Below are positions 15,950 to 19,520 of a stretch of 22,477 nucleotides of DNA, piece after piece (the stretch's first letter is position 1; every line of letters starts with the position of its first letter). The DNA lies in the NCBI GenBank assembly GCA_016191305.1, contig JACPOX010000095.1:1-22477 (forward strand). The letters are read 5' to 3'. Under the pieces are notes generated by a model. It was not told the origin of the DNA. It did no database searches and saw only the letters and a list, made by a program, of their open reading frames with translations. This stretch comes from Legionella longbeachae. GTDB taxonomy: Bacteria; Pseudomonadota; Gammaproteobacteria; Legionellales; Legionellaceae. A program made the translations under genes and the position numbers.

Positions 15950-16363
15950 ATGTCTTTAGGATTAAAGTTAACTACAATTACAACCGCTTTACTAATTGCT
16001 GGATCCGTTTTTGCAGAAGAACCAATTTGTCCAAATCTTAGCGATATACAAGCTGTAGGTATCAACATGGCGTCACAACTTGGATATGATCTTTACGTCG
16101 GTTATACAGTCAATGATTATAACACTTCTTCTACATGGACCTTTGGTATTGGACCAGTGGAAGCTGATTCAGATGAAGACGCCATAGATATATCCAATGA
16201 TATTTTAGCCGATATGAGTGGGCCTGGAGTTCCTACAGAAAGTGATGGTCAAATGCTTTGTGTTTATGAAACGGGTGATCCTAATCTTTTTGCTGTTGGA
16301 ATTAAAGACTTTGAGGGAATGTCTCCAATGAAATTCAAGCAATATATGCATAAAGCACACTAA
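15950..16363 (+). CDS. Small secreted protein, paralog 2 (DUF4949-like)
   Basis: A 137-residue exported protein, roughly half identical to the neighbour upstream, so the pair arose by tandem duplication. AAGGAG lies 7 bases before the ATG. The signal peptide ends near IAGSVFA (residues about 16-22). The mature part begins EEPICPNLSDIQAVGI and contains GIGPVEADSDEDAIDISNDI, LCVYETGDPN (second cysteine) and ends MKFKQYMHKAH. The mature domain is strongly acidic in the middle. The pair is separated by 89 bases containing no T-run terminator, so co-transcription is possible. A perfect GC-rich hairpin 18 bases after the stop would terminate it. Function is unknown. Confidence 0.8.
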   Translation: MSLGLKLTTITTALLIAGSVFAEEPICPNLSDIQAVGINMASQLGYDLYVGYTVNDYNTSSTWTFGIGPVEADSDEDAIDISNDILADMSGPGVPTESDGQMLCVYETGDPNLFAVGIKDFEGMSPMKFKQYMHKAH

Positions 16364-16381
16364 CACAGCTAAGGATTTCAT

Positions 16382-16410
16382 TGTAGGTTGGGCCAGGGGC
16401 CCAACCTACA
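16382..16410. repeat. Perfect 13-base-pair GTAGGTTGGGCC hairpin (repeat, likely bidirectional terminator)
   Basis: TGTAGGTTGGGCC (16382-16394) and GGCCCAACCTACA (16398-16410) pair perfectly around AGG. It lies between the convergent ends of the second secreted paralog and murE, touching the murE stop. It shares its core with the element at 8088-8166, so it is a dispersed repeat that may serve as terminator for both genes. Confidence 0.75.
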
Positions 16411-16412
16411 TT

Positions 16413-17869
16413 CTAATTATGCATTAATCGTCTAACTACTTCCTGATCAGAAAAAGCATATTTCACAGTACCCATCTGTTGGTAAGCCTCATGACCTTTT
16501 CCTGCAATTAAAATAACATCATCTTTATCCGCTGCATTCAAAGCATAAGCTATCGCCTCTTCTCGATCAATTAGTTGGATTACATTAGATGATAAAGAAA
16601 CTCCTTTTGCTATCTCATTAATTATCATTTGCGGATCTTCAGTACGAGGATTATCACTAGTAATTACTATTTGATCTGCGAAGCGGCTAGCAACTTCTCC
16701 CATGATAGGTCTTTTGGTTTTATCTCTATCTCCCCCACAACCAAAAACCACCCACAATCGTCCTTTTTTCAATTGATTTAAAGTAATTAACACATTTTTC
16801 AAAGCATCTGGAGTATGAGCATAATCAACAAGAACATAAGGAGAATTAGCAACAATTTCCATACGGCCAGGAGCTGCTTTTAATTTTTTCATTACATCCA
16901 CTATCTGCTCAGGTGCATAGCCTGAAGCGAATAAACTACTAAACACAGCCAGACTATTGTAAATATTGAATTCACCCAAAGCATTAATTTGCAGTTGATA
17001 CTGTCCCCAAGGCGAATGAACATCAATTTTAGTACCGTTGATATCCATAAACCAGTTTACAGCTCGCACATCACAATCGTGCTGCATACCATAAGTTATT
17101 TTTCTAACATTTGGCTTAACTACTGCTGCCATCATTTTTTGATATGCATCATCTTGATTAATAATTGCCCAGCTCAATAACTCTTGAGCAAATAATAGTG
17201 ATTTTGCTGCAGCATAATTTTCCATGCTTTGGTGATAATCTAAATGATCTAAGGTTAAATTTGTAAATATAGCTTGCTTAAACTCAATACCCTCAACCCG
17301 ATGCTGCACCAAAGCGTGAGAAGACACTTCCATGCAAACTTGTTTGATGTTTTGATTATTATATTGATGCAATAACTTCTGCAAACGTAATGAATCCGGA
17401 GTAGTATTGTCCAATAGCTTTAATTCATTTACATTGCCTTGGCCAATTGTACCTATGTATGCTGCGCCTTGACCTAGTAGGTGATGTGCCTGAGCTAATT
17501 GATAAGCAATAGTCGTTTTGCCATTAGTTCCAGTCACACCTATTACAGTTAGAGAGCTCATTGGATCGTCATAGAACTGTTTAGCAATTAAAGCAAGTTT
17601 CATCGCCAATTCGGGAATGGGAATACAAGGAACCGATGTTGGTAATATGCAATCATCAGGAAAATGAATGGGATCATAGGCTACTGCAGCGGCACCTGAA
17701 GAAACAGCTTTATCGATAAATAAGCGTCCATCAGCGGCTGCTCCAGGACATGGATCTGGCCGCCGTCGAGAAGCTCGACGCTGCGCGCGCCCGCGATGCC
17801 GTCGAGGGTGCCGCGCGCACGCGCGTCTCCCAGCTCAGGAACATACATGTTCCTAAGCTGCAAATTCAT
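16413..17869 (-). pseudogene. murE: UDP-MurNAc-tripeptide synthetase, disrupted near the N-terminus
   Basis: MurE adds meso-diaminopimelate to UDP-MurNAc-L-Ala-D-Glu in the cytosol. The body is intact: from about 17747 downward the frame reads PGAAADGRLFIDKAV, followed by the ATP-binding GVTGTNGKTT (17540-17511), the DNPR motif that selects meso-DAP (16655-16644), and GKGHEAYQ near the end. The expected start is the ATG ending at 17869 (MNLQLRNMYVPEL), overlapping the ftsI stop by 17 bases. Between these two native pieces, about 17748-17831 is a very GC-rich stretch in place of the usual N-terminal substrate-binding segment (the xLTxDSR region). Reading from the ATG runs through it and stops at 17681 in the wrong frame; reading back from the body meets a stop at 17835. 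As written, no full-length MurE can be made. Since the enzyme is essential, a sequence error is the leading explanation. Confidence 0.85.
17748..17831. other. GC-rich foreign-looking segment inside murE
   Basis: About 84 bases of strongly GC-rich sequence sit inside an AT-rich gene; boundaries are accurate to within a few bases. On the plus strand it is open as MDLAAVEKLDAARARDAVEG onward with mostly G/C wobble bases. On the minus strand the same codon boundaries are open as ARGTLDGIAGARSVELLDGG, also with G/C wobble bases. It therefore looks like a scrap of protein-coding DNA from a high-GC genome, strand uncertain. The spacing from the murE ATG to the PGAAADG codons (122 bases) is close to the natural distance in MurE, so it replaces rather than adds to native sequence. 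Confidence 0.75.
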
Positions 17870-19520
17870 CAGTAGGTATATTAAACAATCGCAATGCACC
17901 CGACATCACTTTAGAAAACAAAGGAGCAGCAACTGCAGCAGCATAATAACCTTTCCGAGAAGGTTCATGAATAAATACAACTACAACAAATTTAGGTTTT
18001 GAAACCGGTGCTATACCTATAAAGCTTGCTGTGTATTTTCTATCTTTATACCCATCTTTTCCTGCCACACGAGCAGTACCTGTTTTTCCGGCCACACGAT
18101 ATCCTGGTACCCGTGCGGCAGTACCTGTACCATCCCTTAATACAGCTTCCATCATTGACAATACTTGCTTTGCTGTTTCAGACTTTATTACTTGTAGGCC
18201 GGAAGTAGGCGGATCATTATGCAGCAAAGTTACTGGAATCAATTGACCCTGATTAGCAAAAATCATATTCGCTTTAGCCAATTGCAAAGCAGTAACTGAC
18301 AAGCCATATCCAAAACTCAAAGTAGCTAAAACAAAAGGATTGGCATCTTTAACATTAACTATTGCTCCTTCACTTTCTCCAGGATAAGTACTTTCGGTAC
18401 GCTGACCAAAACCGCAACGCTGCAATAGCCCAATTAATTGCTCCGGCGGGCTAGCTAAAACCATTTTCGTTACCCCAACATTACTTGAGTGCTGCAAAAT
18501 ACCAGTTACATCCAAAACACCATAATTATGAATATCACGCACAGTATGGCCATGTACTCTCATCCAGCTTGGATTCGTATCAATAATCGTTTTAGGTGTA
18601 AACAATCCAGTTTCCAAGGCACTAGCTATACTAAAAGTCTTAATTACCGAACCAGGCTCAAACATATCGGTAACTGCTCTATTCCTATAAGAATCTTTAT
18701 CATAACGACCTCGTGAATTAGGATTATATGAAGGTACATTGGCCATGGCTAAAATTTCACCGTTTTCTGAATCAACTACGACAACAGAACCCGACTTTGC
18801 ACCAAACTCTTCCACCGTTTTAGTTAATTCACTATATGCCAAATATTGCAAGCGTCTATCAATACTTAAAGTCATGTCTCGTCCGGGACGCGGTTGCTTT
18901 ATTATCCCTAATTCTTCAATAATCTGCCCTAATCGATCTTTAATTACACGTTTTTTACCTACGACTCCTTTTAACCAATCTTGATAGGCCAGTTCAATTC
19001 CTTCTAAACCTTGGTCATCTACATTAGTAAATCCTATCAGTTGGGAAATACTGTCTGAATCAGGATAATAACGTTTAAATTCCTTTTGAAAATTAACACC
19101 TGGAATTTTAAGTGATTTGATTTGTTTCGCTAAAGGTGGTGGTAATTGTCTTTGCAAATAGAGAAACTCTAACTCTTTATTCTCTGCATCAACTATTTTT
19201 CTGCTTAATTGTTTTGGGGTCAAATGCAGAAATTTAGCCAAAGACATAAACTGTTCTTTATCTGGAGAAAACTCTTTAGGATTTACCCAGACTGATTCAA
19301 CAGGAGTACTAATAGCCAAGGGAGTACCATTCCTGTCCATGATCATCCCTCTATGTGCAGGAATATCCACGACACGCAAACTGCGTGCATTACCTTGACC
19401 TTGCAAAAATTGGCGATGTAAGACAGTTAAATCAACCATACGCCAAATAAGAACAAGCAAAATAAAGGAAAAAAAAGTAGATACTATGATAAGTCGGTTA
19501 CAATGAGTTGATTTTTTCAT
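17853..19520 (-). CDS. ftsI: Peptidoglycan D,D-transpeptidase FtsI (PBP3)
   Basis: This is the septal class B penicillin-binding protein that cross-links peptidoglycan during division with FtsW. The 555-residue protein has a short cytoplasmic start, one membrane anchor (about 9-30), a pedestal domain with HRGMIMDRNGTPLA at 56-69, and the transpeptidase domain. The catalytic motifs are SVIK at 291-294 (nucleophile Ser291), SSN at 345-347 and KTGT at 479-482. The length agrees with the family. The coding region is normal throughout, and its last 17 bases overlap the murE start, which favours translational coupling. Unlike most dcw clusters, 152 bases containing a palindromic element separate it from ftsL. 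Confidence 0.95.
   Translation of the reverse strand: MKKSTHCNRLIIVSTFFSFILLVLIWRMVDLTVLHRQFLQGQGNARSLRVVDIPAHRGMIMDRNGTPLAISTPVESVWVNPKEFSPDKEQFMSLAKFLHLTPKQLSRKIVDAENKELEFLYLQRQLPPPLAKQIKSLKIPGVNFQKEFKRYYPDSDSISQLIGFTNVDDQGLEGIELAYQDWLKGVVGKKRVIKDRLGQIIEELGIIKQPRPGRDMTLSIDRRLQYLAYSELTKTVEEFGAKSGSVVVVDSENGEILAMANVPSYNPNSRGRYDKDSYRNRAVTDMFEPGSVIKTFSIASALETGLFTPKTIIDTNPSWMRVHGHTVRDIHNYGVLDVTGILQHSSNVGVTKMVLASPPEQLIGLLQRCGFGQRTESTYPGESEGAIVNVKDANPFVLATLSFGYGLSVTALQLAKANMIFANQGQLIPVTLLHNDPPTSGLQVIKSETAKQVLSMMEAVLRDGTGTAARVPGYRVAGKTGTARVAGKDGYKDRKYTASFIGIAPVSKPKFVVVVFIHEPSRKGYYAAAVAAPLFSKVMSGALRLFNIPTDEFAA

What the first reader, a model, noticed from the sequence alone, without database searches (positions are those of the whole stretch)
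17741..17837. Essential murE broken by a short high-GC segment that replaces native sequence
Seen directly: about 84 bases of very GC-rich DNA lie between MNLQLRNMYVPEL and PGAAADGRLF of murE, shift the frame, and leave no full-length reading. The distance from the start codon to PGAAADG (122 bases) is near the natural length, so this is substitution rather than insertion. Flanks resume Legionella-like AT-rich sequence abruptly, and the segment is open in a GC-rich codon pattern on both strands. MurE is normally essential and single-copy. The simplest explanations are a chimeric read or contaminant stitched in at assembly; a gene-conversion-like event with a second murE elsewhere would be far more surprising.
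Basis: partly seen in the sequence, partly recalled or inferred. Interest (0 to 1): 0.75.

Follow-up and report, generated by a model that had tools for sequence, protein, structure and literature searches.

The report
Misassembled start of murE gene
In a draft Legionella genome the first 40 or so codons of the essential cell-wall gene murE are overwritten by a scrap of unrelated high-GC DNA, which is very probably a sequencing or assembly error and not biology.

Summary
On the minus strand, about 94 bases (17748-17841, 72% GC) stand where the first ~39 codons of murE should be and shift the frame. Three details of the finding are wrong. The likely murE start is the ATG at 17844-17842, by comparison with congeners, not the ATG at 17869, so MNLQLRNMYVPEL is not the MurE N-terminus. 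The replaced stretch is 20 bases shorter than in 21 of 23 congeners. The open frames mean little, since five of six are stop-free.

All 23 same-genus genomes examined carry an intact, AT-rich murE start. The window's assembly (323 contigs, 81.68% complete) shows only this murE, and no stray copy of the lost N-terminus was found. The GC peak (80% over 60 bases) is unmatched in the 689 kb of the assembly sampled. That sample also holds 21 short runs of N, as scaffold gaps would give. The ftsI-side junction carries a 14-base inverted repeat with a 2-base loop. The donor was not found.

Best explanation: foreign DNA joined in at a weak spot of a draft assembly, by a chimeric molecule or by gap closing. 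A genuine recombinant is possible but would have broken its only known murE. Verdict: not a real feature.

The parts
16413..17747 (-). murE body, uninterrupted from PGAAADGRLF to the stop codon; lacks the N-terminal residues; Mur ligase middle and C domains matched, N domain (PF01225) not matched
   Evidence: sequence
17748..17841 (-). high-GC segment of unknown origin standing in place of codons 2 to ~39 of murE; edges uncertain by a few bases
17842..17844 (-). ATG at the position of the native murE start codon; its frame now ends after 37 codons
17831..17860 (.). inverted repeat, arms 17831-17844 and 17847-17860 (13 of 14 paired, 2-nt loop), spanning the ftsI-side junction
17853..19520 (-). 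ftsI (penicillin-binding protein with transpeptidase and dimerisation domains), intact; native flank on the upstream side of murE

Best explanation
This is an artefact of making the draft genome. A piece of high-GC DNA, presumably from another organism in the sample, was joined into the ftsI-murE junction in place of the native ~115-120 bases. It arose either in a chimeric molecule, by template switching in amplification or library preparation at short matches, or when the assembler or a gap-closing step bridged a weak spot with the wrong reads. The organism itself most likely has an ordinary murE. Shown: the substitution, its singularity in the sample, the intact congeners, no second copy found and the junction inverted repeat. 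Inferred: that the joining happened outside the cell, and by which route. The inverted repeat leans towards a template switch, the short N runs elsewhere in the assembly towards gap closing; I do not choose between them.
For: Intact murE start in 23 of 23 same-genus genomes examined. The own genome is a draft of 323 contigs, 81.68% complete. 69 of the 80 sampled contigs are readable, and 16 of these hold 21 runs of N of 3-76 bases, which look like scaffold gaps (inference; operators' masking would look the same). The only MurE-level match in the assembly is this one, and the native N-terminal piece was not found elsewhere. The segment occurs once in the assembly and its GC is unmatched in 688,821 sampled bases. 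ftsI and the murE body on either side match their congeners, so only a local stretch is wrong. The junction inverted repeat has 13 of 14 pairs and a 2-nt loop; repeats that good occur at 16 distinct places in the sample (my grouping of the 36 entries), so meeting one at a given junction by chance is roughly 1 in 1,000 (my estimate). In the MDA study PMC1855051 (abstract and passages seen) more than 85% of rearrangements were inverted and over 70% of junctions had primed on 2-21 complementary bases. PMC7111523 (abstract and passages seen) describes local assembly errors that put incorrect gene sequences into metagenome-assembled genomes.
Against: No reads could be examined. The donor of the segment was not found. 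No second high-GC scrap was seen in the sampled contigs, so the process is not visibly systematic. Whether the genome is a metagenome bin, or was amplified, is not known here. No independent assembly of the same species was found (closest other homologue 80% identical among the 120 listed, a database clustered at 90% in which only the 7999 candidates sharing most words were scored), so an intact copy from this very species was not seen.
Confidence: 0.9

Rival explanations
1. A real illegitimate recombination: in the cells sequenced, foreign high-GC DNA replaced the start of murE through short homologies, leaving a broken gene in part of the population or in a lineage that survives by another route.
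For: Substitution with both flanks matching the congeners; inverted homology at one junction.
Against: MurE is essential (established knowledge) and this is the only MurE-level match in the assembly. 23 of 23 congeners are intact. The body frame has no ATG, GTG or TTG start until the TTG at 17609.
Confidence: 0.05
2. The break is real but harmless because a second murE lies in the ~18% of the genome not assembled.
For: Completeness is only 81.68%.
Against: In the listing (capped) each of the 23 congeners shows one strong MurE match (60-80% identity); the further listed matches are 22-37% identical, as expected of other Mur-type ligases.
Confidence: 0.02
3. A shortened MurE is made from an internal start, for instance the TTG at 17609, and works without the N-terminal part.
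For: The remaining body is uninterrupted; an ORF of 398 aa with a TTG start exists.
Against: Among the 120 homologues listed the window's own entry (434 aa) is the only one shorter than 467 aa. The Mur ligase N domain PF01225 is matched in the intact homologue P0003 and not in the window's body.
Confidence: 0.02

Closest known systems
Chimeras of multiple displacement amplification (PMC1855051; abstract and passages seen)
   Same: Short complementary stretch at the junction, inverted arms close together, loss of intervening sequence
   Different: That study mapped both partners within one E. coli genome; here the partner is foreign and unidentified, and whether amplification was used is unknown
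Local assembly errors in metagenome-assembled genomes (PMC7111523; abstract and passages seen)
   Same: Short wrong stretch inside an otherwise sound contig that damages a protein-coding gene in a draft genome
   Different: The sign given there, lack of perfect read support, could not be checked here; that the window's assembly is a metagenome bin is inferred

Membership tests
MurE (UDP-N-acetylmuramoyl-tripeptide synthetase) | Mur ligase middle and C-terminal domains | tested here: met
   PF08245 and PF02875 in P0001
MurE (UDP-N-acetylmuramoyl-tripeptide synthetase) | N-terminal Mur ligase domain and the genus-typical start (MKLSQLL...NDSR...GDLFIAYPG or close) | tested here: not met
   Replaced by the high-GC segment; PF01225 matched in P0003 but not in P0001
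Chimera of amplification (template switch) | Inverted arms at the join | tested here: met
   Arms 17831-17844 / 17847-17860, 13 of 14 paired
Chimera of amplification (template switch) | Both partner sequences identified | tested here: inconclusive
   Donor not found in the collections and samples searched
Local assembly error | Consensus lacks perfect read support across the join | not testable with these tools
   Reads are not held

The most novel reading that the evidence does not exclude
The substitution is real and fixed, and this Legionella species lives with a MurE lacking its first ~40 residues, or with a replacement for it.
Probability: 0.03. Interest if true: 0.6.

Novelty: not a real feature. 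Interest (0 to 1): 0.08.

Why it matters
If it were real it would mean that a bacterium tolerates loss of the start of an essential cell-wall gene. As an artefact it shows that a single broken essential gene in a draft genome should be checked against reads before any biology is read into it, and that a GC jump with an inverted repeat at a junction is a cheap warning sign.

Tried and rejected
Donor of the segment. blastn against plasmids and phages gave only partial GC-rich matches (best E 2e-3 among the 20 plasmid rows listed of 216 records, 3e-2 among the 20 phage rows listed of 113 records; 0 records covering 80% of the query). tblastn of one frame per strand against plasmids: no match for +, one at E 8 for -; one search was run in the wrong frame. 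Pfam on all six frames: one meaningless hit at E 6.5; NCBIfam on the wrong + frame and three - frames, then on one frame per strand, the right + frame included: none. Solved structures: none at E 10. 398 genomes of the phylum, the window's own included, with the + peptide: two weak hits besides the window (E 0.005 and 0.009), one lying antisense to a gene that looks like a branched-chain aminotransferase and one in a gene that looks like ribosomal protein S13 (my reading of the translations); judged chance. The same with the - peptide: only the window itself. DNA against 369 genomes of the window's class: only the window at E <= 1e-7. A 22-mer in genome-contig hit one Aureimonas contig, where the match ends with the pattern. 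A 25-mer in viral contigs gave none; a 20-mer gave one contig with 43 of 89 bases identical around it. From memory I thought of CpaF-type ATPases, aminotransferases and FecR for the peptide readings; no call supports any of these.

Mobile element: rejected, since the segment occurs once in the assembly. GC-rich native gene start: rejected, since the 23 congeners are 36-42% GC there. Paper searches were two.

Full report
What is there. The window is the whole of contig C194 of a draft genome (G000) of 2,483,502 bases in 323 contigs, 81.68% complete, 1.06% contaminated. Homologues of its MurE that carry an organism name in the listing are mostly Legionella and Fluoribacter, at up to 79% identity, and 23 genomes of the same genus were drawn. 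On the minus strand the cell-wall cluster reads mraZ, rsmH (mraW), a short gene where ftsL is expected (name by position), ftsI, murE. ftsI is intact and its product ends PTDEFAA*. The murE body is uninterrupted from PGAAADGRLF to its stop and has the middle and C-terminal Mur ligase domains.

The break. Between the two lies a stretch of up to 80% GC per 60 bases in a window of 37% GC. Comparison with 23 congeners puts the native start codon at the ATG 17844-17842: it follows TTAGGAA at the usual spacing, a motif present before the start in 10 of 23 congeners (AGGAA in 12 of 23), and in L019 the end of ftsI, the motif and the ATG line up with the window. After the ATG the native MKLSQLL...NDSR...GDLFIAYPG-like stretch is missing, and native sequence resumes at about 17747. 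From ATG to DGRL there are 112 bases, against 132 in 21 congeners and 141 in 2. The frame from the ATG ends after 37 codons. The body frame has no ATG, GTG or TTG before the TTG at 17609.

Is it exceptional? In the window plus 80 further contigs of the same assembly (717,200 bases, 28,379 of them N; 11 contigs entirely N; contigs longer than 20 kb cut at 20 kb) no other 60-base window exceeds 71.7% GC, and that one (L091) looks like a tRNA gene (no tRNA program was run). So 81 of 323 contigs were looked at, 70 of them readable. The 69 readable sampled contigs also hold 21 internal runs of N of 3-76 bases, as scaffold gaps would give; masking by the operators cannot be told from this. The segment occurs once in the assembly. 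MurE has one strong match there; two others are 24% identical. A congener's N-terminal piece (46 residues, including the first residues of the body) finds only a 39% match at E 0.04 on another contig.

The junction. On the ftsI side the arms 17831-17844 and 17847-17860 pair in 13 of 14 positions with a 2-base loop. As single-stranded DNA the region folds better than all 200 shuffles (z -4.3), to which the GC-rich part contributes. One arm is native sequence before the murE ATG; the other runs from that ATG into the segment. Inverted repeats of that quality and loop size exist at 16 distinct places in the sample, this one included (my grouping of the 36 entries), so one at a given junction is unlikely by chance, roughly 1 in 1,000 by my estimate. 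A strand that switched template at a short complementary stretch could leave this mark. In PMC1855051 (abstract and passages) more than 85% of MDA rearrangements were inverted and over 70% of junctions had primed on 2-21 complementary bases. A pure assembler error would not by itself explain an inverted arm, though the arm could be a chance match. PMC7111523 (abstract and passages) describes local assembly errors in metagenome-assembled genomes that give incorrect gene sequences. The N runs fit gap closing as the occasion. I leave the route open.

Where the segment came from. GC by codon position is 0.88/0.47/0.88, as in coding DNA of a GC-rich genome, but five of its six frames are stop-free and it is only about 31 codons long, so this is a hint. 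No donor was found in plasmids, phages, 398 genomes of the phylum by peptide, 385 genomes of one class and 369 of the window's class by DNA, or by exact patterns in genome and viral contigs. These are samples, and metagenome contigs could not be scanned, so the donor may simply not be held.

Weighing. A living cell with this murE alone would lack an enzyme known to be essential. The assembly is a fragmented draft, the congeners examined are intact and the junction looks like a template switch or a bad join. I put 0.9 on an artefact, 0.05 on a real recombination in the cells sequenced, and 0.02 each on a second murE in the missing part and on a working shortened MurE. Reads are not available here; they would settle it.

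Noticed in passing
protein P0112 (485 aa, contig of 1937 bases): Pfam PF21799 in place of the usual N domain; looks like a MurD-type N-terminus (recalled) fused to a MurE body at the conserved GTNGKTT motif, perhaps another chimera of assembly in a Legionella-like sequence
   Followed up: partly
window 16380-16412: Short-loop inverted repeat between the convergent murE and a DUF4949 gene (15950-16363, +), perhaps a shared terminator (inference)
   Followed up: no
window 17742-17844 (-): The two edges of the segment resemble each other (ATGTTCCTGAGC and ATGTCCTGGAGC) with small gaps; possibly chance
   Followed up: no
16 of 69 readable sampled contigs of G000: 21 short internal N runs of 3-76 bases, as scaffold gaps would give
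   Followed up: partly
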